From an uncultured Duodenibacillus sp. (GTDB taxonomy: Bacteria; Pseudomonadota; Gammaproteobacteria; Burkholderiales; Burkholderiaceae_F), in assembly GCA_944390745.1 (NCBI GenBank), contig CALXQK010000008.1, forward strand, positions 57,787 to 121,786: a stretch of 64,000 bases of DNA, in the 5' to 3' direction. The notes below the pieces were generated by a model, which worked only from the letters and a program-made list of their open reading frames with translations, was not told where the DNA came from and did not search any database. Of this stretch, positions 1-64,000 are shown in pieces. The position numbers were made by a program, and so were the translations under genes. How positions within the stretch are numbered: the stretch's first letter is position 1; every line of letters starts with the position of its first letter.

Positions 1-2
1 TT

Positions 3-719
3 GGATTTGACGTATTAGAAAGATGTGATGATCCAAAGATCTACGAACTATTGGGATCACCAGATGTTTTAGTACATCTTGCATGGAGAAATGGTTTTAA
101 ACATCATGAAATCAATCATATTGAAGATCTACCAAAGCATTATAAGTTTCTAAAGAACATGGCAATTTCTGGGTGCCACAACATTACAGTGATGGGGTCG
201 ATGCATGAAGTAGGCTACTTTAATGGCGTAGTAGATGAGTGTGTGCATTGCAACCCTTCGAGCTACTATGGAATTGCTAAAAATGCTCTCAGGCAACTAT
301 GTTTAACTGAGTTGACCAAGTATGTTCGAAACATTAAGTGGTTAAGGGGATTCTATGTTTACGGTGATGACGCTGGGGGTGGGAACTCCATTTTCTCAAA
401 ATTGATTGAGTTTGATAAGACTACAGGATCGATAAATCTTACAAAGGGAGATCATAAATTTGATTTCATAGAAGTAAATTTATTAGCTAGGCAGATTGCA
501 TTGGCGGCGATACAGTCAGAAGTAACTGGAATTATTAATGTGTGCTCCGGCAAGCCGATGAGCTTAAAGGAAGCTATAGAAAATTATGTAGCATCGAATA
601 ATTTAAAACTCAAGCTGAACTTTGGAGCCTATCCAGAGCGCCCGCAGGAGCCAAAGATAATTTATGGTGATACAACAAAAATAAGTAAAATCGTCGAAAG
701 TGTTAATGTGAAAATGTAG
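3..719 (+). CDS. NAD-dependent epimerase/dehydratase, 5' end cut by window
   Basis: Extended short-chain dehydrogenase/reductase fold, probably a nucleotide-sugar epimerase, dehydratase or reductase making a precursor for surface polysaccharide. The reading frame is open to the left edge, so the N-terminal NAD-binding glycine loop lies outside the window; a TTG at 51 is not a convincing start. The catalytic YxxxK is visible as YYGIAK, preceded by serine-rich residues, and the C-terminal half has the usual substrate-binding region. It is followed 3 bases later by the first RgpF-type gene, so it belongs to the same AT-rich + strand operon. The exact sugar cannot be assigned. Confidence 0.85.
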   Translation, partial: GFDVLERCDDPKIYELLGSPDVLVHLAWRNGFKHHEINHIEDLPKHYKFLKNMAISGCHNITVMGSMHEVGYFNGVVDECVHCNPSSYYGIAKNALRQLCLTELTKYVRNIKWLRGFYVYGDDAGGGNSIFSKLIEFDKTTGSINLTKGDHKFDFIEVNLLARQIALAAIQSEVTGIINVCSGKPMSLKEAIENYVASNNLKLKLNFGAYPERPQEPKIIYGDTTKISKIVESVNVKM

Positions 720-722
720 AAT

Positions 723-1589
723 ATGTCAACACGGGTTTCGCGCTATGCTATTTGTGTTTACTTCGATCCTGAGGGAGAGTTGCGACCTTTTATGGAGTTC
801 TTTCTATCATCGTTGAGTGAGACTTGCGTTGGTGTTTTACTCGTCGTGAATGGAACCTTAAACAAAAAGTCACGAACAAGGGTCGAGAGTTTAGGAGTTC
901 ATCTTCTGGAGAGGGAAAATAAAGGATATGATTTTTATGCCTATAGAGAAGGTTATTTTTATTTTAAAAACACTATTCACTTGGAGATTGATGAGTTAAT
1001 ATTTTGTAATTCATCGTGTTATGGCCCCATTACATCCTTAACAAATGTCTTCCACGAGATGGATAAACAGGAAGTTGACTTCTGGGGGTTAACACAATGG
1101 CATAGTGAACCATGGCCTGATCATATACAAAGCTATTTCCTTGTTTTTAGAAAAAGACTTCATGAATCAACGGCCTTTCACATATATTGGGAGCAGCTGC
1201 CGAGACTGAGCAGTCGAAAAGATGCTATTGAGAAATGTGAAGTTCAACTGACTTCGTACTTTGCTCGGATCGGTTTCAAATGGAGCACATTTTTACCTCC
1301 ATCAAGGCCTGATTATAGTATGACATTTGTGCACGAAGGACTAGTGAGCGGATTGCCACTATTAAAGAGAAAATTTTTCATATTGAATAACAATGATGAT
1401 GAGAAGAAAAAAGTCTTGTCTTTTCTTTTGAATCAAACGAAGTATGACATCCAACTGGTTTATGAGGACTTTTTTTTATCAAGATATCTATCGAATCAGG
1501 ATAACGGGAAGATTTCTATCAAAACATTCATAAAATGCAACTATCCAAGAGCTACAAAATTGTTAATTAAGTTGAAGCGGTATCTGTGA
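723..1589 (+). CDS. RgpF-type rhamnan synthesis protein (short form)
   Basis: A 288-residue protein of the rhamnan synthesis F (RgpF) family, found in O-antigen and cell-wall polysaccharide clusters and thought to act in glycan assembly. The family hallmark ENKGYDFYAYREG, an NxGxD-type motif, is seen near residue 60, followed by the CNSSCYGP and DFWGLTQ segments repeated in the next gene. It has no clear membrane segments. It starts 3 bases after the epimerase stop and overlaps the next gene at GTGA (1586-1589), indicating translational coupling. It corresponds to only the N-terminal module of its larger neighbour, so it may be a duplicated and shortened copy. Acceptor and donor sugars are unknown. 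Confidence 0.8.
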   Translation: MSTRVSRYAICVYFDPEGELRPFMEFFLSSLSETCVGVLLVVNGTLNKKSRTRVESLGVHLLERENKGYDFYAYREGYFYFKNTIHLEIDELIFCNSSCYGPITSLTNVFHEMDKQEVDFWGLTQWHSEPWPDHIQSYFLVFRKRLHESTAFHIYWEQLPRLSSRKDAIEKCEVQLTSYFARIGFKWSTFLPPSRPDYSMTFVHEGLVSGLPLLKRKFFILNNNDDEKKKVLSFLLNQTKYDIQLVYEDFFLSRYLSNQDNGKISIKTFIKCNYPRATKLLIKLKRYL

Positions 1590-3475
1590 GTGTTCCTATG
1601 TCAAATAATCGCCTGGTTTTGTGCACGTTCTATGAAGAAAATGGAAGGCTATTTGATAGCAATCTTTTTTTTCTAAAATCGCTTATTCCTTTTAGCAAAA
1701 AATTAATTTTGATTGTTAACGGGGAAATTAATGATGACGCAAAAAACAAACTTTCAGGACTTGGAATTTCATCTTTAATTCGAGAAAACAAAGGTCTTGA
1801 TTTTGGTGCTTGGCAAGAAGCTATTTTATATTTGGGTTGGGATGAAATATGTAGCTACGACGATCTGTTAATTACAAATCTAACGTGCTATGGGCCAGTT
1901 TATCCATTGCAAGAGTTATTTGATGAAATGGATAATCGGCATTGTGATTTCTGGGGAATAAATAGGCATCCAGCTATGCCTCATGTGAAGCTAATTCCAT
2001 CAGATCCATCTTCATCAATTCAGGAGCATATTCAGAGTTACTTTGTTAACTTCAAACAAAATGTTCTTTTGAGTGAGCCTTTTCAGAATTTTTGGAACAA
2101 ACTTAAACAGGCATCGTCTTATCAAGAGGAAGTTGCATACCACGAGAGCAGGTTAACATTTTTCCTGGAAAGCTCTGGTTTTATTTCCTCAACATATATG
2201 CCCTTCATGAAATATAAAAGAACGAATGCTAATGCATCGTTACTTGAAGGGCTAAATCAGCTGGTTGAAGATAGAAACCCTTTTATAAAAAAGAAGATAT
2301 TTTCCTTAAGACAGGATTATTGGCTAAATAATGGAAACTGGGGGCAGTGTGTAAATATTCTGCAATACATACGGGACAAGACCAGTTATTCAGCATCTAA
2401 TATTATCCAAGAGATGCTGGCTACTGTGCCAATGTCTACAATTCAAACAAACTTACACCTCACGTATCAAGTTGACAGTATAAATAGTGATAAATCGTTG
2501 TTGTCTAAATCAATTAAACTCGGACTTGTTTTTTTTGCATTTTACGAAGACCAGGTTCAGTATAATCTAAGTTATATTTTTAACTTTCCAAAGGATACAT
2601 TTATTTGTTTGTTGTCCGCACGGACAGAGCTTCTCGATATATATGAAATTGCTTTGAAAGAGAATGGGTTTAACAATATAGAAAAAAGGGAAATTCCCCC
2701 TCGTGGTCGTGATGTCTCGGCCTATATTGTTGGCGCACAGGATGTTTATCAAAAAGCAGATTACATCTGCTGTTTGCATGATAAAAAAACATCCCAGGCT
2801 GGATATTTAGTAGGAACGGCCTATCGAAATCACAATATTGAAAATCTTGTCGCTACAAGGGATTATATTACTAATATAATTCGAGAATTTGAAAAGGATC
2901 CTTTTTTAGGAATGCTTGTTCCCCCGACATATCCTTTGGCACTAGGAAATGAAATGAGTGATCCTGAGAATAGAAGAATTCTCCTTGAGCTATATAAAGA
3001 TTACTCAATTCGAGCGCCGTTTGATGAGATTCCGCTAGCGCCGTACGGAACAATGTTCTGGGTCAGAGGGATAGCTTTTCAGACTTTAAAAAGAAAAACA
3101 TTAAATTTTGAGGACTTTCCTAAAGAGCCAAACTCTACAGACGGGACAATCTTGCATGCATTTGAAAGATTTTATCCGGCCTTGGTTCAGGAGTCGGGAT
3201 TTTATATCGGTTGGTGTGGTACCGCTAAAAACTTAAAATGGTATTTTGATTTGGCATTTTATGTCTGGAGAGAATATCAGAAAAGGTTGTATTCAGTATA
3301 TGGGTTCATGCCGTTGCCAGCGTTATTGGAATCGATATCATTGCAGCGTAGCTCACCAAGATGTGGCGTAAGAAAAGCTGTCTTTAATTTATTGAAAGAG
3401 ATAAAGTTTAGATTGTTCCCTGAAAAGAGTTTTCCCAGACTGAGCGCTTTTGTAGCTAAAGTTCTAAAAATATAA
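1586..3475 (+). CDS. RgpF-type rhamnan synthesis protein, two-module form
   Basis: A 629-residue RgpF-family protein with two similar halves. The N-terminal module (about residues 1-230) carries RENKGLDFGAWQEA and resembles the preceding 288-residue protein. The C-terminal module (about 305-580) carries the classic RgpF motifs PPRGRDVSAYIVG and LHDKKTSQ. The likely role is assembly of a rhamnose-containing or similar O-polysaccharide at the cytoplasmic face. The GTG start overlaps the previous stop codon. Base composition is AT-rich like its neighbours and unlike the rest of the window, a sign of horizontal acquisition. Two active sites in one chain could mean two linkages, but this is inference. 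Confidence 0.82.
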   Translation: MSVPMSNNRLVLCTFYEENGRLFDSNLFFLKSLIPFSKKLILIVNGEINDDAKNKLSGLGISSLIRENKGLDFGAWQEAILYLGWDEICSYDDLLITNLTCYGPVYPLQELFDEMDNRHCDFWGINRHPAMPHVKLIPSDPSSSIQEHIQSYFVNFKQNVLLSEPFQNFWNKLKQASSYQEEVAYHESRLTFFLESSGFISSTYMPFMKYKRTNANASLLEGLNQLVEDRNPFIKKKIFSLRQDYWLNNGNWGQCVNILQYIRDKTSYSASNIIQEMLATVPMSTIQTNLHLTYQVDSINSDKSLLSKSIKLGLVFFAFYEDQVQYNLSYIFNFPKDTFICLLSARTELLDIYEIALKENGFNNIEKREIPPRGRDVSAYIVGAQDVYQKADYICCLHDKKTSQAGYLVGTAYRNHNIENLVATRDYITNIIREFEKDPFLGMLVPPTYPLALGNEMSDPENRRILLELYKDYSIRAPFDEIPLAPYGTMFWVRGIAFQTLKRKTLNFEDFPKEPNSTDGTILHAFERFYPALVQESGFYIGWCGTAKNLKWYFDLAFYVWREYQKRLYSVYGFMPLPALLESISLQRSSPRCGVRKAVFNLLKEIKFRLFPEKSFPRLSAFVAKVLKI

Positions 3476-3478
3476 TTA

Positions 3479-4636
3479 ATGTTTACTATGGTAAGACTTC
3501 TTGACTTTCTCATTGAAAAAATGCTCTTCCTGTTGTTTGTTATTAGAAGTTCCTTCTTGGTGAGAAAGAGAAAATGTTTACTTATTAGTCATGAAGCGTC
3601 GTTGAGTGGGGCTCCGGTCGTCTTATTGAATGTGGCAAAAATTCTATGTACGCTCGGGTGGACACCGATAATTCTTTCGCCTTATCGTGGCCCTCTCTTT
3701 TCTGAGGCTAGACAAAATAAAATCACAATGTTAAGGTGTCATTGGAGGAATATAGTTCGTTGTGCGCAATTTGGGGCGAAAAGATATGATCTTATAATCG
3801 TAAACACTTCTGTTAATGGATATGTAGTTAATGGATTGCAGGATTTTGATTATTGTCCAGTTTTGTGGTGGATTCATGAATCTGCTGCGGTATATAGTGA
3901 TGCATGTATACGACAGTTACCTGTAGAGGTGAAGGGTCATATAAAAATATGTGCAGGTGGTGACTATGCAAAAAGCCAGTTAAGACGTTTTAGGCCAAAT
4001 TATAATATACAGACGCTGTTATATCCTACTTTGGATTTAAAGAAAATAATTTCAGAAGAAGCTGTTGAGTGCTCTAAGAAAATAAATCTTTATTGTATAG
4101 GAACAATCGAAGAAAGAAAGGGGCAAGACCTTTTGGTTCGTGCGATTAAACAATTGCCTCAGGATGTTTTGAATGAGTGTTGCTTTACTTTTATTGGAAG
4201 GATTGGTTCTCCAGAGATATACAGTACAGTGAAATCGCTAGTTAGCTGCAAGGGTGTTGCCTGTGAATCGATGGGAACAGTGCCGTTAAAAGATCTGTAC
4301 AAGCAATATCAGAAAATGGACGTTTTAATTTGTCCGTCTCGTGATGATCCAATGCCTGTTGTCGTAGCTGATGCCCTTTCTCTTGGAAAAATCGTTGTCT
4401 GCTCTTCTAATACTGGATGCGCCAGTATTTTAACTGCAAACAATGCTGGTATTGTATTTCAAAATAATTCAGTTACGGATTTGACCAACTCAATCATAGA
4501 GGCAATCCGCATTGTTAAGCAAAAGAGATTGCGATCTATTTATTCGGCTCGTGCCAGATCTGCTTATAAGGATAATTTTTCTGAAGACTCATTTCTAAAA
4601 AGCTTTGAAATTCTACTTAGGAAGTTGAACCTTTGA
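3479..4636 (+). CDS. Glycosyltransferase family 4
   Basis: A 385-residue GT-B fold retaining glycosyltransferase. The N-terminal domain begins after a hydrophobic stretch (residues about 10-25) that may anchor the protein to the inner membrane, and contains SLSGAPVVLLN. The C-terminal donor domain has the EERKGQDLLVRAI element and SRDDPMPVVVADALSLGK, which corresponds to the GT4 E-x7-E region, although the first acidic residue is replaced. It follows the RgpF gene by 3 bases and precedes an epimerase by 12, so it is operonic. It probably adds one sugar to a lipid-linked glycan. Donor specificity cannot be read from sequence. Confidence 0.85.
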   Translation: MFTMVRLLDFLIEKMLFLLFVIRSSFLVRKRKCLLISHEASLSGAPVVLLNVAKILCTLGWTPIILSPYRGPLFSEARQNKITMLRCHWRNIVRCAQFGAKRYDLIIVNTSVNGYVVNGLQDFDYCPVLWWIHESAAVYSDACIRQLPVEVKGHIKICAGGDYAKSQLRRFRPNYNIQTLLYPTLDLKKIISEEAVECSKKINLYCIGTIEERKGQDLLVRAIKQLPQDVLNECCFTFIGRIGSPEIYSTVKSLVSCKGVACESMGTVPLKDLYKQYQKMDVLICPSRDDPMPVVVADALSLGKIVVCSSNTGCASILTANNAGIVFQNNSVTDLTNSIIEAIRIVKQKRLRSIYSARARSAYKDNFSEDSFLKSFEILLRKLNL

Positions 4637-4648
4637 TCAAATAATTGT

Positions 4649-5551
4649 ATGAAAAAAATACTTATCCTCGGGTCTAATGGTTACCTTGGCAGTTCGCTTT
4701 TTAAATTTTTATCTACTTGTGATAATTATTTTGTAGTGGGTTATCAGAGGCACTGCCAACAAAATCTTAATTGCCCTCGCATTATTTGCAGGGATTTCAT
4801 TGGCGAGGATTGGGAATCGTTTTTTGCAAACAATGATTTTGATGTTGTAATACACCTTATCTCATCAACTACACCTTCATCCTCCATGGAGCTTGTCCTG
4901 AATGAGTTGAATGGTGTGGTGCTGTCTACGTTAAAATTAATCAATAGCTTAAAGGAATCAAAAACTAGATTTATTTTTGCATCATCCGGAGGAACAGTTT
5001 ATGGGAGTGATTATAAACTACCTATTAAGGAAAATTCGAAGCTAGACCCTGTATGCAGTTATGGCATGCATAAAGTTCTTATTGAACATTATCTTAGATC
5101 ATATGGGGTGTCTTACGGGCTTGATTACAAGATAATGAGAATAGCAAACCCATACGGTGGGTGGGGGCACAAAAATAGGGCACAAGGCATTATCCCTTTA
5201 TTGGTCAGTAAGTTATTTGCTAATGATTTTATAGAAATATTCGGCAATACAATTCGTGACTATTTGTATGTAGATGATCTAATGCAGGCCTTCTTGTGTG
5301 TGATTTGTGATAGTCAGAATGAGCACCGTATATTTAATATTGGAACGGGTGTCGGTACATCGACGTTTGAGTTGATTCGACTTATTGAAGATGCTGCGGG
5401 TAAATCATTTAAAGGTATCAATATTACTGATTTGCGGCCTTGTGATGTTCCGTACAATGTTCTAGATATTGCCTTAGCTAAGCAAGTCTTGAAGTGGTCC
5501 CCAAAAGTCACCCTTTCAAATGGTATTCGTGAATATTTGAGAACCATCTAA
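4649..5551 (+). CDS. NAD-dependent epimerase/dehydratase (UDP-glucose 4-epimerase-like)
   Basis: A 300-residue extended SDR enzyme. It begins with a Rossmann loop GSNGYLGSS and contains the catalytic YGMHK (YxxxK) with an upstream SSGG segment, then NPYGGWGHKNRAQG, typical of GalE-like nucleotide-sugar epimerases. The length is slightly short for GalE (about 330). It is the last gene of the polysaccharide cluster in the window and supplies a sugar precursor, possibly by 4-epimerisation. The first epimerase at the window edge is a different member of the same superfamily rather than an obvious duplicate. Confidence 0.85.
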   Translation: MKKILILGSNGYLGSSLFKFLSTCDNYFVVGYQRHCQQNLNCPRIICRDFIGEDWESFFANNDFDVVIHLISSTTPSSSMELVLNELNGVVLSTLKLINSLKESKTRFIFASSGGTVYGSDYKLPIKENSKLDPVCSYGMHKVLIEHYLRSYGVSYGLDYKIMRIANPYGGWGHKNRAQGIIPLLVSKLFANDFIEIFGNTIRDYLYVDDLMQAFLCVICDSQNEHRIFNIGTGVGTSTFELIRLIEDAAGKSFKGINITDLRPCDVPYNVLDIALAKQVLKWSPKVTLSNGIREYLRTI

Positions 5552-6002: not shown

Positions 6003-6606
6003 ATGCAGAGCAGCAAACGCAGCGGAACTAGCCGAAAGGCGATCCGCACCAACGCCCGCGATCTGGGTGTCAACATTCCTCGAGACCGTGACAACAGTTC
6101 CGAGGCGGTCCTGCCATCCAGGCATTCCCGCCGCTTCGACGGCCTAATCGCCATGTACGCCCGCGGTATGAGCACGCGCGGTACCGGCGACTATCTGCCT
6201 GAGCAATACGGCGTGCAGGTCTGGCTTGGGTATGCGGAGCTTCCGGGGGACGGTCTTCAACGCACTGAAGGCGCGCGGTCTGGTAGACATCCTGAGCGTC
6301 GTCATGGACGGCATCAAGGGCATGACGCAAGCCTTGGAGACCGCATGCCCGAAGACGGGGACAATGCTGTTCTGCTGTTCGCAGATCTGGCGAAACACCT
6401 GGGTGCAGGTGGTGCCGTTCTTCCGCTTCCCGTCGGAGGTACGCAGGCTCATCTACACGACGAACTCGATTGAGGTCTTGAACCGTGCAATTTGCAAAGT
6501 GATCAAGACTCGTACGCTGTTCCCAGCGAAGGCCGCTGCCAAAAAGCTCATCTTCCTTGCGATGCGCAACGACACAGCCGCATGGAAGAGGCCAGCGGTA
6601 CGTTGA
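6003..6606 (+). pseudogene. IS256-family transposase remnant
   Basis: Decayed mutator-type (IS256) transposase. Frame one (from about 6003) keeps VNIPRDRD and MYARGMSTRGTGDYLPEQYGV, matching the family's N-terminal half. After about 6205 the frame changes and sequence between is lost. Frame two (from about 6226) keeps ALKARGLVDILSVVMDGIKG, the VxxDGxKG catalytic-Asp region, then jumps to VVPFFRFPSEVRRLIYTTNS and KVIKTRTLFPAKAAAKKLI from the C-terminus. At least two deletions and one frameshift make it inactive. It sits at the compositional boundary between the polysaccharide cluster and the GC-richer chromosome. No intact terminal repeats were found. Confidence 0.85.
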
Positions 6607-7587: not shown

Positions 7588-8334
7588 TTAGCCAACAAAG
7601 TAACGATTTAGATCTTCGTATGATCGGATCATTCGAACGACTCGTCCTACAATTGGGACAAAGCTAGTGTGCTCCATGTCAAAAGCTGCGGCGCCAAAAC
7701 ACGGATTGTCGGCAACTAGAGAAAGCATATTTCCTGTCAGAACGCAGTGCCGAAGACAAAGTCCAACTTCGTCCTCCTCGGATAGTCGAACGGAATATAT
7801 GGCCTTCTGATCACTGGCGCTGAGAAATAAGTAGGAAATCATTGGGCGCATCAAGACGAGGTCTCCGGGAAGCAGGCCTGGTGCCATAGAATTGTCTGTG
7901 ACATAGAGACCATAACTTCGGCGCGTGGGAAGCGAATAGTTGTCAATGTCAGGCAAATGCATCCAGACAACTGGACTTGAGCTGGAAGCAGGAGCAACCT
8001 TTGAGCTGCTCGCTCGATAGACGGGCACCCAGTTTGATGAGCTTTCAGAACTATCCTCCCTGCCTTCTGGGCAAGTTTCACGTAGTGTCAGTTCACACCC
8101 CAAGTCTCGGCGATTCTCTGCAGCTGCGGGCGCGTCCGGCGTCATCTCGAGCAGATAGTCTGTGCTGACATTGAGGCTGCGCGCGATCTTTTTGAGCAGT
8201 TCGTAGTCAGGTTCGCTACGCCCCATGATGTAGTTGTTCAGTCGCCCGCGGGTGATGCCTATGGAATTAGCAAAAACTGCCTGAGAGAGACCTTTTTGGG
8301 CAAGAATCTTGCGGATTTGCGAGCTAAAAGACAT
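7588..8334 (-). CDS. XRE-family regulator with S24/LexA-like C-terminal domain
   Basis: A 248-residue repressor-like protein. Residues about 5-62 form an XRE helix-turn-helix (QAVFANSIGITRGRLNNYI). After a Ser/Pro-rich linker, the C-terminal half resembles the peptidase S24 fold of CI and LexA repressors, with DNSMAPGLLPGDLVLM carrying the expected nucleophile Ser. In the region of the catalytic Lys I see LCLRHC, so autocleavage may be lost or altered. A strong AAGGAGG ribosome site precedes the ATG. It lies upstream of pirin and downstream of the MmgE/PrpD gene in the same orientation and is the likely local regulator. A prophage origin is possible, but no phage genes are nearby. Confidence 0.85.
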   Translation of the reverse strand: MSFSSQIRKILAQKGLSQAVFANSIGITRGRLNNYIMGRSEPDYELLKKIARSLNVSTDYLLEMTPDAPAAAENRRDLGCELTLRETCPEGREDSSESSSNWVPVYRASSSKVAPASSSSPVVWMHLPDIDNYSLPTRRSYGLYVTDNSMAPGLLPGDLVLMRPMISYLFLSASDQKAIYSVRLSEEDEVGLCLRHCVLTGNMLSLVADNPCFGAAAFDMEHTSFVPIVGRVVRMIRSYEDLNRYFVG

Positions 8335-54897: not shown

Positions 54898-55351
54898 CAA
54901 CTGAAATTGAAACACGGGTGAAAATTCCCTGCCGAAGGCGTCTCTTGGGGCGACGTTGGTTCGTCTTGATCTGTCAAACCGTCCATTATAAAGAGTGCCG
55001 GCAGCGGAAAAACGGCCCCGCGCCCGCCGCCGGCCGGGACTTCCGGCACTCGCCGCAGTCCCGGGAGCAGGACTCTCCAAAACCATAGTAGGGGAATGTT
55101 CATCAGGGTTTGATCCTAATTCCGTCAGACGATCCTGACGGCGGCGCGATAATTCTGCGCAGAGAGATCCGTGGTATACCAGCCGGGATCTGAAATCCGC
55201 CCGGGCGTCGTTGCGGCGCTTGAAGCGGTGCAGTGCATTTGCGAGGCTCCGATGACCTCCGCAAGGGCTTCGGGACGAGCGTCCCCGTCGCCCTGCGGCT
55301 CAAGGAGCGCAATCCATTCACGATCCATTGACATGGAGGTTAAGAAAGGAA
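54898..55351. other. Divergent intergenic region upstream of aminotransferase
   Basis: About 450 bases between plsC (- strand) and the aminotransferase (+ strand). An inverted repeat CCGTCAG-N6-CTGACGG (55122-55141) is present. A 69-codon open frame on the - strand (55125-55334) is not convincing. No riboswitch type is recognised. Confidence 0.45.
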
Positions 55352-56533
55352 ATGACTCTGAAGCACAATTTCGATGAAGTCATCGACCGCACCCACACCA
55401 ACAGCTCCAAGTGGCTGAAGTACCCGGCCGGCGTTCTGCCGATGTGGGTGGCCGACAGCGACTTCCGTTGCCCGCAGCCCGTGGTCGAGGCCGTCACCAA
55501 GCTCGCGCAGTTCGGCGTCTACGGCTATCCGTACGTCAATGAGGGCGGCTTTGAGAAGGCGTCCGTGGCCTGGTGCAAGCGCCGCCTCGGCTTTGACGTG
55601 CGCCCGGATCAGTGCGACTACGTGCCGAGCCTCGGCACGGCTCTTGCCGTTGCCGTCAAGGCCTTCACCAAGCCCGGCGAGAAGGTTCTGATGCAGTCGC
55701 CCATCTATCCTCCGTTCACCGCCGTCACCGTCAAGAACAGCCGCACCCCGGTGTACAACTCGCTCAAGTTCGTCGACGGCAACTACCAGATCGACTTCGA
55801 CGACTTCGAGAAGTGCTGCTCGGATCCGGCCGTGAAGCTCTTCCTGCTGTGCAACCCGCACAACCCGACGGGCCGCTGCTTTACGCGCGAGGAACTCGAG
55901 CGCATGGTCGAGATCTGCGCCAAGCACAACATCGTGATCTTCTCGGATGAGGTGCACTCCGACTTCGTCTATGCGCCGCACGTGCATGTGTCGTTGCCGA
56001 CGCTCTCGAAGACCGCCCGCGACATCTGCATGGTGGGCCTCAATCCCTCGAAGACCTTCAACGTCGCCGGTCTGCGCACCGCCGGCGTTGTGAGCCCGAG
56101 CTCGAACCCCGAGATCCAGAAGGAGTATCAGCACGCCCTGGCCTCCTGCAAGATCGGCCGCAACATCTTCGGCGACCTTGCCTATCAGATCTGCTTCAAC
56201 GGCGAGTGCGACTACTACGCCGAGCAGGTCCGCGACTACGTCAAGGGCAACATCGACTACGCCGTCGAAGCCCTCAACAAGATCCCCGGCATCAAGGCCT
56301 ACACGCCTGACGCCACGTATCTGCTGTGGATCGACTGCAACGGCCTGGGCTTTGAAACCCAGGAGGAGCTCGACAAGTTCGCCGTCGAGCAGTGCAAGAT
56401 CGGCCTCAACCCGGGCGAGTCGTTCGGCAAGGAGGGCAAGGGCTTCCTGCGCATGAACCTTGCCTGCCCGCGCTCCTACGTGGTCGAGGGCTGCAAGCGC
56501 ATTGCCGAGGGCGTTGCCGCTCTGAAGAAGTAA
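55352..56533 (+). CDS. MalY/PatB-type PLP-dependent aminotransferase (C-S lyase)
   Basis: A 393-residue class I/II aminotransferase of the MalY/PatB subgroup, usually cystathionine beta-lyases acting on C-S bonds. The start MTLKHNFDEVIDRTHTNSSKW is typical of PatB. The PLP-binding region is in the LNPSKTFNVAGLRTAG segment (Lys in PSKTFN), with LLCNPHNPTGRCF and FSDEVHSDFVY for the phosphate and Asp/Tyr contacts. The ATG at 55352, with an AAGAAAGG-like site, is chosen over the TTG at 55328. Substrate could be cystathionine or cysteine. Confidence 0.9.
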   Translation: MTLKHNFDEVIDRTHTNSSKWLKYPAGVLPMWVADSDFRCPQPVVEAVTKLAQFGVYGYPYVNEGGFEKASVAWCKRRLGFDVRPDQCDYVPSLGTALAVAVKAFTKPGEKVLMQSPIYPPFTAVTVKNSRTPVYNSLKFVDGNYQIDFDDFEKCCSDPAVKLFLLCNPHNPTGRCFTREELERMVEICAKHNIVIFSDEVHSDFVYAPHVHVSLPTLSKTARDICMVGLNPSKTFNVAGLRTAGVVSPSSNPEIQKEYQHALASCKIGRNIFGDLAYQICFNGECDYYAEQVRDYVKGNIDYAVEALNKIPGIKAYTPDATYLLWIDCNGLGFETQEELDKFAVEQCKIGLNPGESFGKEGKGFLRMNLACPRSYVVEGCKRIAEGVAALKK

Positions 56534-56716: not shown

Positions 56717-58405
56717 ATGCCCGTGAAGGATGAAAGCCGCTCGCTTCTGGACTGGTTTCTCGACGGCGGCCGGCTTGCCGTCGCCGACTGCCAGCGCTCT
56801 TATGAATGGCCCGAGAGTCTTGTTGCAGACTTCGTCGAGGATCTGATTGCCAAGCTCTCGCACGAGGCGCCCGGGGTGCCCGACATCGGCGTCGTTGTTC
56901 TCGAGCGCGATGATGAAGGCGGATATTGCATCATCGACGGCCAGCAGCGGCTTCTGACGAGCGCGCTTTTCATGCTCGAAGTCTGCGGCCCCGGGGCGCT
57001 TTTGCAGACCGACTGCCGGTTGCGCCGGCTTCTTTCAGAGCCCGCGGGAAATTTTCAGACGGTGCTCCACGCCCGTCAGGCGCGCCGTCAGATTCGAGGC
57101 GTACTTGCACGCCGCCGCCTCTTTCGAAAGGAGGCTGGTGAGGATGAGCGGCTCGCCTTTCTTCGGCCGATCACTTTTTCCTTCGTTGAGTTCGAGCGGC
57201 GGCAGGGGAAGGCCCCCGACGACGGGGTCGTTCGTTTTTTCAAGCCCCTCAACACCACGCAGCTTCCCTTGAACGGCGGGCAGATTCTCAAGGCGCACCA
57301 CATGGGGCGGATTTGCAAGGGCAGAACTGACGAGATCTGGCGGCTGCAGTCGCAATACGACGCCTGGATGCAGCGCAAAGAAGACGGCCGCAACGACAAG
57401 GCGCTGGGCCTGACGGACTTTCACCCCGTCACGTTCAACACCGACGAGAAAATTTCGATCACGCGCTTTGTCGACAGTCCCGGACAGGAGGCGTGGTATT
57501 TTCTGGGCTGCGGATTTGTGCAGGCTGTCCAGGCGCTGCTTCTGGGGCAGGACGACTGGTGGCTTGAGATTGCGCGGCAGGGAGCCGAGCGGCAGTCGCC
57601 CTATGAGCGCCTTGAAGGCAGCGCGCGGCCGTGCCCCGGCGCCTGGAGTGCCGCGCGCCCCCTTGAGTTTGCAGAAGGCGAGGGCTTCTTTCGGATGCTC
57701 GATCGATTTGGGCGGCTCTTTAATGCCTACGTCCGGGAGCTTCAGGCGCTGCCCGCGGACCTGCAGGCGCCTTCCGAGGCCTGCTCAGCCGGGCCCGACG
57801 ACATGGATTGCGACCGACGCCCGGCGCGCCTTGTTTGCGAGGCCGCCCGGCATGCGGCGGCCTTCGGCAGCGCCCTGGCGCGCTGGTGCCGCGACGACGT
57901 CGATCGGCTGGCCGTGCCGGTGCTCGGGGACTTTTGCAGGTTCGCTGACAAAAGGCGCGTCGAGATCGATGGCTCGTTTGCAAATCCCCGCAGCCTTCTT
58001 GGCCTCCCGGAGCAGGGAGGGTGCCTGAGCAATGTGTTCGGCTGCATCCCGACGGCTGTGTTTGCGTCGGCTCTTGCCTGGAGCGAACGCTTTGCAAGGC
58101 GGGAGGATGATGCGGCAATCAAGCGGCTTTTGATCCTGCAGCTTCTCCATGGCCGCACGCAGAGCCGCTCAAGAAGCGTTCTCAATGCGCTTGCCGCTTC
58201 GCAGGCCGTTGCGGCCGCCGGCTTCTCGCTTGATGTGCAAAGCGCGCTCTGGCGCCTCATCAAAAAATGGCCATGGCGCTTTCAAAGCTGGGCAAGCCAG
58301 CTCGAGCCGGTTGTCTTCAGAATGAGAAAGGAGCTCAGGGACGCCTCTGAGGCCGAAGTCGAGGCGCTTGATCTGCTCCACGGCGCCCTTCTTTTTGCGG
58401 CGTGA
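56717..58405 (+). CDS. DUF262 domain protein (GmrSD-like), first of a tandem pair
   Basis: A 562-residue protein with an N-terminal DUF262 domain, which belongs to the ParB/Srx-like fold found in GmrS and in many defence and toxin systems. The diagnostic residues are QRSYEW (residues 26-31) and IIDGQQRLLT (72-81, including the invariant DGQQR). The C-terminal half is mostly helical, with no HNH or DUF1524 motif visible. ATG 56717 is used. It is followed 20 bases later by a second, similar DUF262 gene, and the shared N-terminal motifs suggest duplication. Function in DNA or nucleotide handling is inferred. Confidence 0.82.
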   Translation: MPVKDESRSLLDWFLDGGRLAVADCQRSYEWPESLVADFVEDLIAKLSHEAPGVPDIGVVVLERDDEGGYCIIDGQQRLLTSALFMLEVCGPGALLQTDCRLRRLLSEPAGNFQTVLHARQARRQIRGVLARRRLFRKEAGEDERLAFLRPITFSFVEFERRQGKAPDDGVVRFFKPLNTTQLPLNGGQILKAHHMGRICKGRTDEIWRLQSQYDAWMQRKEDGRNDKALGLTDFHPVTFNTDEKISITRFVDSPGQEAWYFLGCGFVQAVQALLLGQDDWWLEIARQGAERQSPYERLEGSARPCPGAWSAARPLEFAEGEGFFRMLDRFGRLFNAYVRELQALPADLQAPSEACSAGPDDMDCDRRPARLVCEAARHAAAFGSALARWCRDDVDRLAVPVLGDFCRFADKRRVEIDGSFANPRSLLGLPEQGGCLSNVFGCIPTAVFASALAWSERFARREDDAAIKRLLILQLLHGRTQSRSRSVLNALAASQAVAAAGFSLDVQSALWRLIKKWPWRFQSWASQLEPVVFRMRKELRDASEAEVEALDLLHGALLFAA

Positions 58406-58425
58406 GGTTTCCAGGAGGCTTGGCC

Positions 58426-60345
58426 ATGGGGCACCAATTGCGAATCAGACATCGCACCGTCACGGCCGCTGATCTGCTCGAGCGGCTCGACGATCTTTTT
58501 GAACCTGAAGCCGGTTCGGCCCGGGAGGCAGACGGCTCGCCGGCGCTGCGCATTCCGTTCTGGCAGCGCGACTACGAATGGACGCCGGATCAGATCCGGC
58601 CTTTTCTTAAAGCCATTCTCAAGGCGGCGGACAGCAGGCGGTGCGCCTATCTCGGAACCGTCGTGCTGGGCGTGCATGCACGCCACCGGACGCAGGTTCT
58701 GGTCATTGACGGGCAGCAGCGCCTGCGCACCCTGCAGATTCTCATCAATCGCTGCAAGGGCCCCCTTCTGCGGCTTGCGCGCGGCATCGACATCTCCGGG
58801 CGGCCGCTTTCGGACGCCGACATTGAGCAGGATCTGCAGGAGGTTGAGGCCGACTTGTCCAAGATGCAGCCCGAGGCCTTTGAGGCCTTTTCAAGTGATG
58901 CTCTCAAGGGAATTGCCGCGCATCCTCTCAAGGATTGGCTTGAGCGCGTCTGGTTTCGCATGATCGACGTGCGCCTTGGGCTTGAGGATCGCGACGACGA
59001 CGATCCGTTTGAGCTTGTCATGTCGAACCTTTTTTCGAGCCTGAATCGACAGGGAAGGGCGCTTGAGGACGGCGACGTCATCAAGGCGGAGCTTCTCTTC
59101 AAGTGCCGCAGGCTCGGGCGCGAGGACCTGAGCCTGCGGCTGGCCGATGCCTGGGAGACGGCGCGCATGCTGCAGCTTGCGCCGTCAAATCTCGTCTCGC
59201 GCGAGCTCTTGAAGTGCGCCGTTCTTGGAGACGAGAACGACGAGCTCGAGGCCTTCGACTACGACCAGGACGCCGTGCGGCTGCAGTTTTACCGCTACCT
59301 TCTGCTCGTTTTGGCCTATGCGCACCAGTGCGCCGAATCCTATGCAAAGGGAAAGTCCCCCGGGGAGCTCCTCCAAGGCGGGGCGCTTCTGAAAATGGAT
59401 TGCGTAAAAAGGCTTCTCGAAACGAACGATCCCGATGAGGTCGAGACGTTTGTCGCGGCGCTTGAGCGCATCAACCAGGCCTTCATCGACAACCGGGGCT
59501 TTCTGCTGCTGTCGCGTCGAAACCGACCGGAAGACAGGGATGACGGGGAGAGCCGCAAGGACTGGCCGCCGCCGCTCACAAAGGGCCGAAGGCGCCTGCT
59601 TGCCTTTCAGGGCTATGTGAGCGCGGGTCTGAAGGACAACTGGCTTGAGCAGCCGCTTCTGATGCAGCTGCTGCGCGGCCTGATTTTGAGAGGTTCGTCA
59701 GACGACGCGGCGCTTGGTGAAATTCTCTCGGAACTTGAGGCGCAGCTTTTTTCCAAAATCAGCGGCGAGAACGGCGAACCTGTCGCCATTACGGCGCGGG
59801 ACTGGTTTTTGCGGCGCGCGCTATTTGATGATCTTGAAAACGACCTGGTTCACGACGCGGCCCTCGCTGGCTGCGAGGCGATTCTTCAAAAGGAGCCCAG
59901 GCAGTTTGATGCGGACTCGGGCGAGGCGCTGCTGGAGACCTTCCGGGAGGATTTGAGCCGGATGCCCCCGCTCGATTTTCCGGCGAGCACGGGCGCAGGC
60001 GAGATCGACCACTGGATTGCGCTTGATCGCGGCACCAACGTCAAAGACGACGAGCGGCGCGTCTACGAGCCGCTCGCCAACAAGGCGCACATCTCCCGAG
60101 GCCTCAACCAGAGTCTGGGCAACATCAGCATTCTCCAGAAGGCGGGCAGGCTCAACGCATCCTGCTGGCCGTCGCTGCTGTTTCTGGCCGCATACTCCAG
60201 ATGCGCCCGCAAGTGGGATGTTTCCGACAACTCGCAAAAGTCCCAGTATGTGCGCGACTTCCTCGCTCCGCTTGAGGCGTTCTGGGCCGCGGTTGCCGAG
60301 CGCCTGAACCCGAAGGTTGCCTGTGCTCAAAGGGGCGAGCCCTGA
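58426..60345 (+). CDS. DUF262 plus DUF1524-like protein, second of tandem pair
   Basis: A 639-residue protein with the same N-terminal DUF262 features (QRDYEW at 47-52; VIDGQQRLRT with DGQQR at 95-99). The C-terminal 115 residues contain EIDHWIALD and a later LGNISILQKAGRLNAS, which resemble the His-containing and LGNLTLL elements of DUF1524, an HNH-like nuclease domain as in GmrD. The match is partial: the expected IEHI is seen as IDHW. ATG 58426 is chosen because AGGAGG lies 8-13 bases upstream; the frame is open to 58402. Together with the preceding gene it could form a two-protein nuclease. Confidence 0.75.
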   Translation: MGHQLRIRHRTVTAADLLERLDDLFEPEAGSAREADGSPALRIPFWQRDYEWTPDQIRPFLKAILKAADSRRCAYLGTVVLGVHARHRTQVLVIDGQQRLRTLQILINRCKGPLLRLARGIDISGRPLSDADIEQDLQEVEADLSKMQPEAFEAFSSDALKGIAAHPLKDWLERVWFRMIDVRLGLEDRDDDDPFELVMSNLFSSLNRQGRALEDGDVIKAELLFKCRRLGREDLSLRLADAWETARMLQLAPSNLVSRELLKCAVLGDENDELEAFDYDQDAVRLQFYRYLLLVLAYAHQCAESYAKGKSPGELLQGGALLKMDCVKRLLETNDPDEVETFVAALERINQAFIDNRGFLLLSRRNRPEDRDDGESRKDWPPPLTKGRRRLLAFQGYVSAGLKDNWLEQPLLMQLLRGLILRGSSDDAALGEILSELEAQLFSKISGENGEPVAITARDWFLRRALFDDLENDLVHDAALAGCEAILQKEPRQFDADSGEALLETFREDLSRMPPLDFPASTGAGEIDHWIALDRGTNVKDDERRVYEPLANKAHISRGLNQSLGNISILQKAGRLNASCWPSLLFLAAYSRCARKWDVSDNSQKSQYVRDFLAPLEAFWAAVAERLNPKVACAQRGEP

Positions 60346-60350
60346 GGGCG

Positions 60351-60376
60351 CCGGGCGCGGCTTTTGCGCGCCCCGG
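60351..60376 (+). terminator. Stem-loop after second DUF262 gene
   Basis: CCGGGCGCG (60351-60359) pairs with CGCGCCCCGG (60367-60376) with one extra C. There is no U-tract directly after it. Confidence 0.45.
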
Positions 60377-60532
60377 GGCAATCTTTCAAGAGAGTGCAGG
60401 CGGCGTTTTTTGACGCGTCGGCATGACCGGACAGACAGCACGTTGAAGCGTTCGGCCGGGACATGAAGCCCGCCGGCGGTCTTTGCGCCGCTGGGCGCAG
60501 CCTCTTCACGCCCTGATCTCCGAGGCGGCAGA

Positions 60533-60566
60533 CCGGCTTCGGTTTTTCCAGAGCCGGCTTTTTTTT
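60533..60566 (+). terminator. Rho-independent terminator
   Basis: CCGGCT (60533-60538) pairs with AGCCGG (60552-60557), followed by T8 (60559-60566). It is placed to end the DUF262 operon on the + strand. Confidence 0.65.
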
Positions 60567-60612
60567 GCCGTCAGCCCCCGCGCGCCTGTTCGTCCCGAGG
60601 AAAGCGAGCTTT

Positions 60613-60906
60613 TCAAACGGAGCGCTTCCCCGGGGAAAGAGCCTCTGTCCTGGGGCTCGGTGCGGCATCTGAAGCGGCTTGAAACGTGTGCTGCCAGGCT
60701 GATGGAGACACGTCAAAGGCTTCGCGAAACCGCTGCCGGAAGGTCACGGCCGAGGCATAGCCGCAGGCCTGCGCCACCTGCTCGATGTTCGCGGCGGTGT
60801 TTTCAAGAAGCTCCTGCGTGCGCCGAAGTCTTGCCCTGACGAGCCGCTGTGCGGGCGTCATGCCGGTGCTTCGCCAAAACGCCCGGTAAAAGGAGCGCTC
60901 GCTCAT
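60613..60906 (-). pseudogene. AraC-family regulator remnant (C-terminal HTH only)
   Basis: A 97-residue frame holding an AraC-type double helix-turn-helix: SERSFYRAFWRSTGMTPAQ, RLRRTQELLENTAANIEQVA and GYASAVTFRQRFREAFDVSP. Upstream the frame stays open for only a few matching residues (AAARQAA) before unrelated Arg/Gly-rich sequence, so the usual N-terminal ligand or GATase-like domain is missing. It is therefore probably a truncated remnant rather than a small functional gene, although short HTH-only AraC proteins exist. Confidence 0.65.
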
Positions 60907-61203
60907 GGCCGCCTGGCGCGCGGCGGCAGCCCTCGAAGCGCCGCGCCGCGTTCCTTTCCCGCCTTTTCTCGTTTCTGCGCCCGCCCCTGCGACAACTGTT
61001 GACGCATGCTTTTTTTATGATGGAGGCGTTGGGAGAGCGTGATGTCCTCTTGATTCACGTCGGCCCGGCGCTCCTCGCATGCGCTGCGGGGCCGGCTGTC
61101 GAAGGCCGCGCCCTGCGAAAAAAGACGCAGAAGTTTTTTCCCTGTGAAAAAGGAGGCGGCGCCTTCTTCTCTGCCGGAAGGCAGGGGAGTGCGTCGTGGA
61201 TTG

Positions 61204-62982
61204 ATGAATCTCAGAATTTTGTGCAGACGGTCCCGGGGTGCGTCGCTTGTAAAAGATAGCGGCGCCCCGAATACGCTTGAGCTCTGGCAGCTGCGGCTGC
61301 TTGCTGAGGCCGGACTCTGGCAGGAACTCGACCCTGATGAGCTCTCCCCGGGAGGCGACTGGAGCGGGGAAGGCTGGGTTCGGGAACTCTTTGACGAGCT
61401 CAATTGGGCGATGGCGGTTTCGCTCAATGCCGACTTTCTTGAAACCGGCTGCGTGAGCAGGCTTCTCGACAAATTCATGAAGGGCACGCTTGTAAGCGGC
61501 GGCAAGAATGACGATGCCGCGACTTCCGGGATCGTCGCCCGCGAAGACCGTCTGCAGTTTCTCAGGACGCGCCTGAGCGGCATTCTCGAGACGGCGACGA
61601 GTCTTCTCTATCCGAGCACGGATAGAGTTCTTCCCGAGGAGCTCGGCGCCTACTGGAGATGCATCTGCGGCGGGGGAACGGTCAGAAAGTGGCTCGGCAT
61701 CGATTCTCCGGAGTCGATCAAGGGCGCCTATGAGAAGCTGCGTGCGAGAATTGACGATGAAACCGCCTGTCTTCCCCAGCCTCTGGCCGAGAACCTTGCG
61801 GACATCCGCCGGGCGTTCGGCCTTTCGGATCTCGACACCCGCATCCTGGCGTTTCTTCTGGAGGCATCCATTCGCGGCAGCGGGCTTGGACTGCTGCTGG
61901 AGGGACTCAACTTTTCCCATGGGGCACAGGAAGTGCTTGTCGGCATCACGGCCGCAGCTCTAGGGGAGGATCGCCAGGCCGTCATGGAGCGGCTCGGCCG
62001 CGAGGCGCCGCTCATCCGCACCGGTCTTGTCGGATTTTCCGAGAGTTTGGAGAATGACTTCTGGAGTCGGCTCGAATTTCTTGACCACAATCGGTTCCGC
62101 TGCCTGACCTCAATGCGCATTCCGCTCGAGAAGCTTCTGTCCTCGACGGTTTCGAAGGCTCCCGAACCGGAGCTGACGCTTGCGGACTATGCGCATCTTC
62201 CGGTTGCTTCGCGCGTTCTGACGCCCTTTCTCAGAAAGGCGATCAAGGAGCGCCGCGCAGGAGTCAACATTCCTCTGTACGGCATGCCTGGAACCGGAAA
62301 GACCCAGCTATCCCGGGCGGCCTGCCGGGAGCTTGGCGCCGAACTTTATGACGTGGCGACGGCCGGCGAGAACGGACGGCAGGCAAGCCGTCTGCAGCGC
62401 TGGGAGACTGCATCGATCTTTCTGAGCGCTGCATCCGACACGGTGCTTGCCGTCGACGAGGCCGAGGATATCTTCAACGATGACGGCGCCAGCGCGCCCC
62501 TGGTGCGCATTTCCGGAGAGCTGGGGGTGCGGATCAACAAGGGCCGCATCAACAGGCTGCTTGAGACCAATCCGCTGCCGACCTTCTGGATCACCAACTC
62601 GATTCGCTCGATTGATCCGGCCATGATCCGTCGCTTTGACCTCGTCATCGAGGTTCCGGCGCCCGGTCTTGAAGGCCGCCGCAGGATTATCGAGCAGGCC
62701 TTCGGCGGAGGGATCTCGGAATCGACGGCTTCACGACTCGCGCAGGCCGAAAAGCTCGCGCCTGCCGTCGTCAGGCGCACGGCTCGCGTCGCATCGACGG
62801 TGGGTTTTGGGGATGGAGCGATTTCCGAGGAGGACGTCGTCGGGCTTTTTGATGAGACTGAACTAAGGTCATCGTTGCGGAATTTTGAATCTCAAAACGA
62901 ATACGGCTATAAGCCATGTATCAAAAGGAGGTTTCAGAATGCCGAAACGTTACAGTCCAGAAATCAGACGAACAGCTCTTGA
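61204..62982 (+). pseudogene. AAA+ ATPase gene truncated by IS3 insertion
   Basis: An AAA+ ATPase frame. From ATG 61204, the N-terminal 350 residues are helical with no recognised domain. Walker A is GMPGTGKT (residues 360-367), Walker B ends at VLAVDEAED (Asp-Glu at 418-419), sensor 1 is TFWITNS, and an arginine-finger-like RRFDLVIEVPAP is near 475. From about 62859 the translated sequence is that of an IS3 element, so the last matching residue is about 551 and the C-terminal part, often a further AAA module, is lost. The start is uncertain because the frame is open to 61144. Related ATPases of unknown role occur widely in proteobacteria. Whether this gene belongs with the DUF262 pair is inference. 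Confidence 0.78.
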
Positions 62983-63205
62983 GCTCGTCAATCAGGGGCA
63001 GACACAAATCGAGGTTGCACAAGCTTTGGGAGTTAGCCCCAAGACACTCAGCCACTGGGTTACCACAACACAAGCTCGTATGCCTGATCAGCAACGCAAT
63101 GAGCTTGAAGAACTCAAACGATTGCGCCTGCAGGTACGCAAGCAACAGGCCGAAATCGACTTCTTAAAAAAAGCAGCAGCGTACTTTGCCAAGCTGCCCA
63201 AGTGA
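62939..63205 (+). CDS. IS3-family transposase OrfA
   Basis: An 88-residue OrfA. An N-terminal helix-turn-helix (RRTALELVNQGQTQIEVAQ and SPKTLSHWV) is followed by a leucine-zipper-like helix (LEELKRLRLQVRKQQAEIDF). AAGGAGG precedes the ATG. An A7 run (63166-63172) near its end is a -1 frameshift site that would fuse OrfA to OrfB. The stop overlaps the OrfB GTG. Confidence 0.92.
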   Translation: MPKRYSPEIRRTALELVNQGQTQIEVAQALGVSPKTLSHWVTTTQARMPDQQRNELEELKRLRLQVRKQQAEIDFLKKAAAYFAKLPK

Positions 63206-64000
63206 AGTACGCTTTTTTAAAGACTTGTTTGGACAGCAAACTCATCGGGCGCAGAAAACTCATCAGTGTTCGAAAGGCTGCCGCCCTGCTGAGGATCAGT
63301 ACCAGCGGCTACTATCAGTGGCTAAAGGTTGATCGATACCACCGCCACGGAGTGCATCACAGCGACGAGGAGTTGCTTTGTCATGTGCGCACCGTTATCA
63401 GCCGTTGCGGAAAACAGGTTCCCGGAGTGATGCGCCTGTACCTTGCGTTGCGCCGAGAGGGCTTAAGCGTTGGTTTTAAGCGCCTGCGCAGACTTTTGCG
63501 AAGCAACGGCATCTTCCATCGCTACCATCGCAAATACACTGCCACCACGGACAGTAACCACAACCTGACTCGATTGCCGAATTTGATTGACCGTCAGTTC
63601 AACCGCTATGCGATCAATCAGGCTTGGTGCGGAGACATCACGTATATCCCAACCGACGAGGGTTGGCTTTTCATGGCCAGTGTGCTTGATTTGGCCAGCC
63701 GTTGCCTGGTTGGCTACAGTTTTGACTCAATCATGAAAACGTCCTTGGTTGTGGACGCTTTGCGCATGGCGATCGCCAACGAGCACCCGTCGCCGGGCTT
63801 GATTTTTCACAGCGATCAAGGATCACAGTACTGTAGCCATGGTTTTCAGGAATTTTTGCTTCACCAGGGCATTAGTGGCTCTATGAGCGAGCGTGGGCAA
63901 TGCTGGGACAACGCTCCGGCCGAATCATTTTGGGCAACCCTGAAGCGGGAAACACTACCGTTATCCGGATGCTTTAGCAGTCGAAAGGAGGCGCAGGATA
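63202..64000 (+). CDS. IS3-family transposase OrfB (DDE), 3' end cut by window
   Basis: An integrase-core transposase, at least 266 residues, open to the right edge. The DDE residues are visible: GDITYIPT (first D), HSDQGSQY (second D) and CWDNAPAESFW with the E following. The GTG start overlaps the OrfA stop, and the frame is -1 relative to OrfA, with no stop between the A7 slippery run and this frame, so an OrfAB fusion can be made. No truncation is visible within the window. Confidence 0.92.
   Translation, partial: MKYAFLKTCLDSKLIGRRKLISVRKAAALLRISTSGYYQWLKVDRYHRHGVHHSDEELLCHVRTVISRCGKQVPGVMRLYLALRREGLSVGFKRLRRLLRSNGIFHRYHRKYTATTDSNHNLTRLPNLIDRQFNRYAINQAWCGDITYIPTDEGWLFMASVLDLASRCLVGYSFDSIMKTSLVVDALRMAIANEHPSPGLIFHSDQGSQYCSHGFQEFLLHQGISGSMSERGQCWDNAPAESFWATLKRETLPLSGCFSSRKEAQD

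What the first reader, a model, noticed from the sequence alone, without database searches (positions are those of the whole stretch)
56717..62858. Tandem DUF262 genes next to an AAA+ ATPase: candidate defence-like module
Two adjacent genes share DUF262 motifs (QRxYEW, DGQQRLxT), and the second has a DUF1524-like C-terminus, giving a split GmrSD-type architecture with two DUF262 copies. An AAA+ ATPase follows on the same strand, with an AraC remnant between. DUF262/DUF1524 proteins are known in Type IV restriction (GmrSD) and other anti-phage systems. The tandem arrangement with a separate ATPase is not one I recognise. The ATPase may be an unrelated neighbour.
Basis: partly seen in the sequence, partly recalled or inferred. 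Interest (0 to 1): 0.75.

Follow-up and report, generated by a model that had tools for sequence, protein, structure and literature searches.

The report
Divergent two-gene TgvAB-like restriction pair
Two neighbouring genes look like a distant member of a recently described two-protein kind of bacterial defence that acts on phages with chemically modified DNA; the ATPase gene beside them is a cut-off neighbour that probably has nothing to do with it.

Summary
Gene A (56717-58405) and gene B (58402-60345) overlap by 4 bp and each begins with a DUF262 domain. B ends in a strongly diverged DUF1524-type (His-Me) region: Pfam misses it, but its D/E-H...N...N residues are kept in 5 of 5 family members, and profiles link it weakly to DUF1524. 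A was found in 5 of 67 family genomes, always directly before B; B had one further partial hit. The AAA+ ATPase is truncated by an IS3-type element and is not adjacent to A-B in the other 4 genomes. The tandem is a known kind: TgvAB has the same order and domain plan (passages); 22 of 80 related loci carry tandem DUF262 genes, and a tree places A with most first genes and B with the second genes. Unusual is the divergence: A's C-terminal ~350 residues match no Pfam, PADLOC, NCBIfam or PDB sequence. Best reading: a divergent new member of the two-protein GmrSD/TgvAB type IV restriction kind. Nuclease fold and activity remain unproven.

The parts
56717..58405 (+). Gene A, TgvA-like: N-terminal DUF262 (residues 20-195) plus a ~350-aa C-terminal region of unknown family
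57362..58402 (+). C-terminal region of A (residues 216-562); among 1,940 ORFs of the fetched loci its HMM matches only the relatives of A (next best E 0.17)
   Evidence: no match
58402..60345 (+). Gene B, TgvB-like: N-terminal DUF262 (residues 49-232), helical middle, diverged DUF1524-type C-terminus
60007..60141 (+). Putative His-Me nuclease core of B (residues 536-580: D536 H537 ... N560 ... N569 ... K580)
   Evidence: H537, N560, N569 and K580 invariant in 5 of 5 members (window plus four), residue 536 D or E; aligned to the E-H...N...N of DUF1524 proteins by hhalign
55328..56533 (+). Flank, not part of the system: class I/II aminotransferase gene; DNA homology to G016 and G018 stops at its stop codon
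60613..60906 (-). Flank, not part of the system: AraC-type HTH fragment (97 aa)
61144..62859 (+). Flank, not part of the system: first ~572 residues of an AAA ATPase, cut by an insertion sequence
62859..64000 (+). IS3-type insertion element (OrfA-like and OrfB-like transposase genes), runs to the contig end

Best explanation
A and B form a two-gene, two-protein defence system of the GmrSD superfamily with the plan of TgvAB. Both DUF262 domains would bind and hydrolyse NTP through DGQQR and together sense modified (non-self) phage DNA. B's diverged C-terminal His-Me domain would then cut or nick that DNA. A's unique C-terminal half would be needed for recognition or for licensing B. Shown here: the pairing, the DUF262 domains, the conserved motifs, the co-occurrence, and the placement of A with first genes and B with second genes of widespread tandem pairs. 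Inferred: the nuclease fold, complex formation, NTP hydrolysis, sensing of DNA modification, and phage resistance. The ATPase takes no part.
For: Pairing: A found in 5 of 67 family genomes (window's own included), B in those 5 plus a partial hit in G054; A lies directly before B on one strand in all 5, with G059's A split over two contigs. QR, DGQQR and FxxxN present in both proteins and invariant in the alignments (4 rows for A, 5 for B). Profile comparison with other tandem pairs: A against first genes E 2e-19 and B against second genes E 5e-21, better than the crossed controls A against second 5e-15 and B against first 1e-17; only B against second genes aligns beyond DUF262 (columns 46-608), superposing D/E-H, N and N. 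Bridge: the B C-terminal HMM hits the second gene of a more distant tandem in G054 (i-E 5.5e-6), which has PF07510 in the same region (2e-6). Tree of 61 DUF262 domains: A family with 23 of 26 first genes on one side, B family with all 26 second genes and 3 first genes on the other, support 95/90. Fast turnover: in same-genus G016 the flanking aminotransferase is 89% identical, but B is 31% identical and lies on another contig. TgvAB and GrwAB restrict phages with modified DNA and each needs both proteins (passages).
Against: Pfam finds no DUF1524 in B (E<=1) nor in 4 of 4 relatives; the HxxPQ of DUF1524 reads HW[IV][AS] here. The C-terminal part alone gives hhalign probability 15%, E 0.0017. 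A DUF1524 HMM built without the family scores relatives weakly (2.7e-4 for G016, 0.057 for G053, 0.15 for G017), and neither the window's B nor G059's was among the best 75 ORFs. The AlphaFold model of B is poor (mean pLDDT 54.1) and shows no strand between residues 521 and 600, where a beta-beta-alpha fold is expected (pLDDT 32-56). Foldseek's only two hits at E<=0.001 are SspE chains (1.5e-4) with TM 0.16-0.19, too low to show a shared fold. A lacks the DUF7834 domain found in 19 of 22 other first genes. No phage data exist, and TgvA and TgvB themselves were not compared.
Confidence: 0.75

Rival explanations
1. A, B and the ATPase form one three-gene system.
For: Same strand, within 0.8 kb here. 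ATPase relatives occur in 4 of the 5 genomes that have A-B (Fisher p 0.037), or 5 of 6 if G054 is counted (p 0.013); kinship is not corrected for. In G017 one lies about 8 kb from A-B on the other strand.
Against: Not next to A-B in any of the other 4 genomes (the G059 A-B contig is only 8.5 kb, and its ATPase is on another contig). ATPase relatives are in 22 of 67 genomes, 17 or 18 of them without A-B. No neighbour is shared by more than two of 19 ATPase loci within the ~1 kb flanks held. Here the gene is truncated by an IS element and separated from B by an opposite-strand AraC fragment.
Confidence: 0.03
2. B's C-terminal domain has lost catalysis or changed role, so A-B acts without cutting DNA (for example as an NTPase switch or a regulator).
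For: Pfam misses DUF1524 in 5 of 5 family members; the HxxPQ motif is changed; the poor model shows no strands there.
Against: H537, N560, N569 and K580 are invariant in 5 of 5 although mean column identity in that part is 42%; a dead nuclease should not keep them.
Confidence: 0.12
3. A phosphorothioate-sensing effector like SspE or DndI.
For: Same DUF262-DUF1524 plan. With the profile of B plus 22 second genes, 9jfl (DndI) is the best solved relative, before 20yv/20yw (818 aa, not identified here) and SspE. Foldseek's two significant hits are SspE.
Against: No DndC in the genome at E<=0.001 and no dnd or ssp gene among the flanking genes scanned. SspE works as a single protein by the papers' account. 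Other ssp and dnd genes were not searched genome-wide.
Confidence: 0.05
4. Two decaying paralogues without function.
For: The locus holds decayed neighbours (AraC fragment, IS-cut ATPase).
Against: Both frames are full length and uninterrupted with intact motifs; the pair is kept together in 5 genomes although B is only 27-42% identical among them.
Confidence: 0.05

Closest known systems
[quoted passage not shown] cholerae VPI-2; PMC11411939 and PMC12409362, passages seen)
   Same: Two genes, first DUF262 (TgvA), second DUF262 plus C-terminal His-Me nuclease (TgvB); QR, DGQQR, FxxxN in both. TgvB H571 and N602 are 31 apart, B H537 and N569 are 32 apart.
   Different: The window pair is not inside a type I R-M operon; its nuclease region is too diverged for Pfam; the C-terminal half of A is of unknown family. 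TgvA and TgvB sequences themselves were not compared.
GrwAB (V. cholerae WASA; PMC12137116, passages seen)
   Same: Two DUF262 proteins, one with a His-Me nuclease; the two asparagines are 9 apart in GrwA (N521, N530) and in B (N560, N569).
   Different: The catalytic H of GrwA (H431) is 90 residues before its first N, against 23 in B. The nuclease protein is named first (A). GrwB has an extended multi-domain C-terminus. Sequences not compared.
Widespread tandem pairs DUF262-DUF7834 + DUF262-DUF1524 (22 of 80 loci hold tandems; L118-L120 on plasmids)
   Same: Same gene order; DUF262 domains of A and B fall with most of their first genes and with their second genes.
   Different: A has no detectable DUF7834 and B no Pfam-level DUF1524.
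GmrSD fusion proteins, BrxU, SspE, DndI (single-chain enzymes)
   Same: B has the N-terminal DUF262, helical middle and nuclease-like C-terminus.
   Different: Here a second DUF262 gene is always paired with it (5 of 5 genomes).

Membership tests
TgvAB-like two-protein type IV restriction | Two adjacent co-oriented genes, DUF262 without DUF1524 first, DUF262 with nuclease second | tested here: met
   Order and DUF262 domains; the nuclease part is judged in its own row
[quoted passage not shown]
TgvAB-like two-protein type IV restriction | C-terminal DUF1524/His-Me domain in the second protein | tested here: inconclusive
   No Pfam hit; H, N, N kept and profile link through G054; model poor and without strands there
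TgvAB-like two-protein type IV restriction | DUF262 domains belong to the first-gene and second-gene lineages of tandem pairs | tested here: met
   (support 95/90; unrooted split, several long branches); profile comparisons. Not a feature named in the papers
TgvAB-like two-protein type IV restriction | Both proteins needed; protection against phages with modified DNA | not testable with these tools
   -
TgvAB proper (type I-embedded) | Lies inside an hsdMSR operon | tested here: not met
   No hsd gene among the flanking genes scanned; the two N6_Mtase matches of the genome are on contigs C5 and C19. The authors report 1,341 tgvAB hits against 79 for the five-gene operon, so embedding does not define the kind
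TgvAB proper | Direct sequence similarity to TgvA and TgvB | not tested
   No V. cholerae sequence was fetched
GrwAB | Partner protein with extended multi-domain C-terminus; similarity to GrwA and GrwB | not tested
   Sequences not fetched; plan taken from passages
Split GmrS + GmrD | DUF262 and DUF1524 on separate chains | tested here: not met
   B carries DUF262 and the nuclease-like region in one chain
SspE/DndI phosphorothioate systems | Phosphorothioation genes in the genome | tested here: inconclusive
   No DndC at E<=0.001; other dnd and ssp genes not searched

The most novel reading that the evidence does not exclude
A separate clade of the two-protein type IV kind, seen in these samples in one bacterial family only, in which the first protein carries an unrelated ~350-aa module where most others have DUF7834 and the nuclease has diverged beyond Pfam. 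It would sense a DNA modification, or another trigger, that TgvAB and GrwAB do not.
Probability: 0.3. Interest if true: 0.5.

Novelty: new member of a known kind. Interest (0 to 1): 0.33.

Why it matters
It suggests that two-protein DUF262 systems reach lineages where Pfam and PADLOC models show only two DUF262 proteins, so model-based surveys may undercount them. The tree suggests that most first and second genes stem from two old DUF262 lineages that travelled together. This bears on a question the TgvAB paper and the review leave open: why two DUF262 proteins are needed. The conserved, unexplained C-terminal half of A is a concrete place to look for the recognition element.

Tried and rejected
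Three-gene module with the ATPase: rejected. Split GmrSD: rejected, B has both parts. DUF7834 in the C-terminal half of A: no HMM hit in either direction; hhalign probability 0.6% over 29 columns. Viral carriage: the B C-terminal profile found no relative in viral contigs (22 pattern matches, none confirmed); the A profile found 66 loci, with matches up to query residue 262 of 562. The 80 are not a random sample; some pairs are cut by contig ends, and pairs with an ORF under 350 aa were not counted. The wider genome searches scored at most 3 or 6 candidates per genome, so a match could be missed. Structure models of both proteins were too poor to judge the fold (pLDDT 54.1 and 49.6); the model of A was not searched against structures. 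PADLOC hits (HEC-06, Orf5, SspE and others) cover only the DUF262 end, residues up to 156 in the rows shown. Fisher tests ignore kinship. The host name was not determined; a Sutterella-like betaproteobacterium is only a guess from memory.
Full report
OBSERVATION. Gene A (56717-58405, 562 aa) and gene B (58402-60345, 647 aa) are on the + strand and overlap by 4 bp. Each has a DUF262 domain (PF03235): A residues 20-195, 52.4 bits; B residues 49-232, 71.5 bits; cut-off 33.2. They are the only two DUF262 matches in this 2.22-Mb genome. The QR, DGQQR and FxxxN motifs that the TgvAB paper lists for DUF262 are present in both and invariant in the family alignments (A, 4 rows: Q26 R27, D74-R78, F175, N179; B, 5 rows: Q55 R56, D103-R107, F211, N215).

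THE PAIR IS A UNIT. Of 67 family genomes (own included), B (single-sequence search, E<=1e-6) is found in 6 and A (profile, E<=1e-20) in 5. The sixth B hit (G054) matches residues 38-118 only and belongs to a more distant tandem of DUF262 genes. Three of the A genomes besides the window's had supplied rows of the A profile, but window A alone, by tblastn against the fetched loci, also hits all four relatives at 5.6e-35 or better. In all 5 genomes A lies directly before B on one strand. In G059 the contig starts inside A, and the rest of A is on another contig.

THE NUCLEASE QUESTION. Pfam finds no DUF1524 in B or in 4 of 4 relatives. Yet P527, H537, W538, N560, N569, S571 and K580 are invariant in 5 of 5 members, and residue 536 is always D or E. 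The family profile aligns with 19 second-gene proteins of other tandems over columns 46-608 (E 5e-21), placing D/E-H, N and N on the DUF1524 motif. Much of that score must come from DUF262: B against first genes, and A against second genes, where only the DUF262 end aligns, give 1e-17 and 5e-15. The C-terminal part alone reaches E 0.0017, probability 15%, in the same register. The C-terminal HMM of the family finds, after the five members, the second gene of the G054 tandem (i-E 5.5e-6), then two further DUF262 proteins (0.002, 0.01) among 1,940 ORFs. The G054 protein has PF07510 at 2e-6 in the same region. The spacing H537-N560-N569 (23 and 9) is close to GmrD H144-N169-N178 (25 and 9). GrwA shares the N-N spacing of 9, but its H is 90 residues before the first N. 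Against it: a DUF1524 HMM made without the family scores three relatives weakly (2.7e-4, 0.057, 0.15), and neither the window's B nor G059's was among the first 75 ORFs. The AlphaFold model is poor (mean pLDDT 54.1) and has only helices between residues 521 and 600. Foldseek's two hits at E<=0.001, both SspE chains at 1.5e-4, have TM 0.16-0.19 and do not show the fold. I read this as a diverged but probably active His-Me domain; that is inference.

GENE A. Its C-terminal ~350 residues match only the relatives of A among 1,940 ORFs of the fetched loci and nothing in Pfam (E<=1), PADLOC, NCBIfam or PDB sequences. 19 of 22 first genes of other tandems carry DUF7834, as do 3 of 3 plasmid first genes. 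A shows no significant similarity to it in either direction. In the class-level sample 18 of 368 other genomes matched the A profile, all listed matches within profile positions 3-220 of 588. In the phylum-level sample 45 of 397 other genomes matched the B profile, all listed matches within positions 9-230 of 643. The B C-terminal profile was found in 2 of 399 order-level genomes, the window's own and G016, both of which had supplied rows. At most 3 or 6 candidates per genome were scored.

A KNOWN KIND. In those pairs 21 of 22 second genes have PF07510; of the first genes 19 of 22 have DUF7834 and 3 of 22 PF07510. The three plasmid records hit by A or B also hold such tandems, one of them between hsdS and hsdR genes of a type I R-M operon. 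In a tree of 61 DUF262 domains the A family lies with 23 of 26 first genes and the B family with all 26 second genes and 3 first genes (95/90; midpoint root for drawing only, long branches). TgvAB has this plan and order, both proteins are required, and it restricts phages with hypermodified cytosine. GrwAB is a second two-DUF262 system. I saw passages of these papers (PMC11411939, PMC12409362, PMC12137116), passages of PMC10952713 and PMC11662687, and passages and one section of PMC4619093, none as a whole. Paper searches for tandem or paired DUF262 and for DUF7834 returned none, and no title in the listings points to this clade; preprints and most subscription papers are not held.

CONTEXT. 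The aminotransferase gene just upstream is 89% identical in G016 and G018; G017 has no match to it at E<=1e-60. B is 31% identical in G016 (on another contig), 35% in G017, absent from G018 at E<=1e-6, and 42% identical in G059 of another genus. DNA homology to G016 and G018 stops at the aminotransferase stop codon; the G018 contig ends about 140 bases further on. In G016 a phage-type integrase gene begins about 0.7 kb further on, followed by a RhuM gene. This patchy pattern fits defence genes. In the tree the window's B pairs with G059 rather than with its own genus (97/68, not starred).

THE ATPase. Its relatives occur in 22 of 67 genomes. The six compared have open frames of 806-834 aa, and in 5 of 6 the window's AAA region also matches a second stretch, so they appear to hold two AAA modules. 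The window copy keeps the first ~572 residues (match to 572 in 5 of 6, to 601 in G018's) and then runs into an IS3-type element whose edge is at about 62859. No neighbour is shared by more than two of 19 relatives' loci within the ~1 kb flanks held. It is near A-B only here (0.8 kb) and in G017 (about 8 kb, other strand). Co-occurrence by genome is mildly raised (p 0.013-0.037, kinship ignored).

VERDICT. A divergent member of the two-protein GmrSD/TgvAB kind of type IV restriction; likely an anti-phage system that senses modified DNA. The ordinary part is the architecture; the open parts are the nuclease fold, the recognition half of A and the chemistry it reads.

Noticed in passing
62859-64000: IS3-type element with OrfA-like and OrfB-like genes at the contig end; an 85-base stretch 93% like its left end is on contig C10.
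   Followed up: partly
1-5548: Low-GC block (about 36-43% per kb against about 60-69% in most of 16-62 kb) with two RgpF-type rhamnan synthesis genes, a glycosyltransferase and an epimerase: probably an acquired surface-polysaccharide locus, with a Mutator-type transposase fragment just after it at 6003-6470.
   Followed up: partly
7591-8334: Gene with HTH_3 and a weak S24 peptidase match, like a phage-type repressor; beside it a pirin-like gene; other neighbours not scanned.
   Followed up: no
L216 (G016:C1:4976-5827): The same-genus genome G016 carries a DUF7834 gene as well as the divergent A-B pair, so both types may coexist.
   Followed up: no
L118:2279-10948: On an Aliarcobacter plasmid the tandem DUF262 genes overlap a PD-(D/E)XK nuclease gene on one side and a UvrD-helicase gene on the other, suggesting a four-gene operon.
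   Followed up: no
L078 and L087:9653-13348: Gemmatimonadota pairs in which both DUF262 genes fall on the second-gene side of the tree, near the B family but on a long branch.
   Followed up: no
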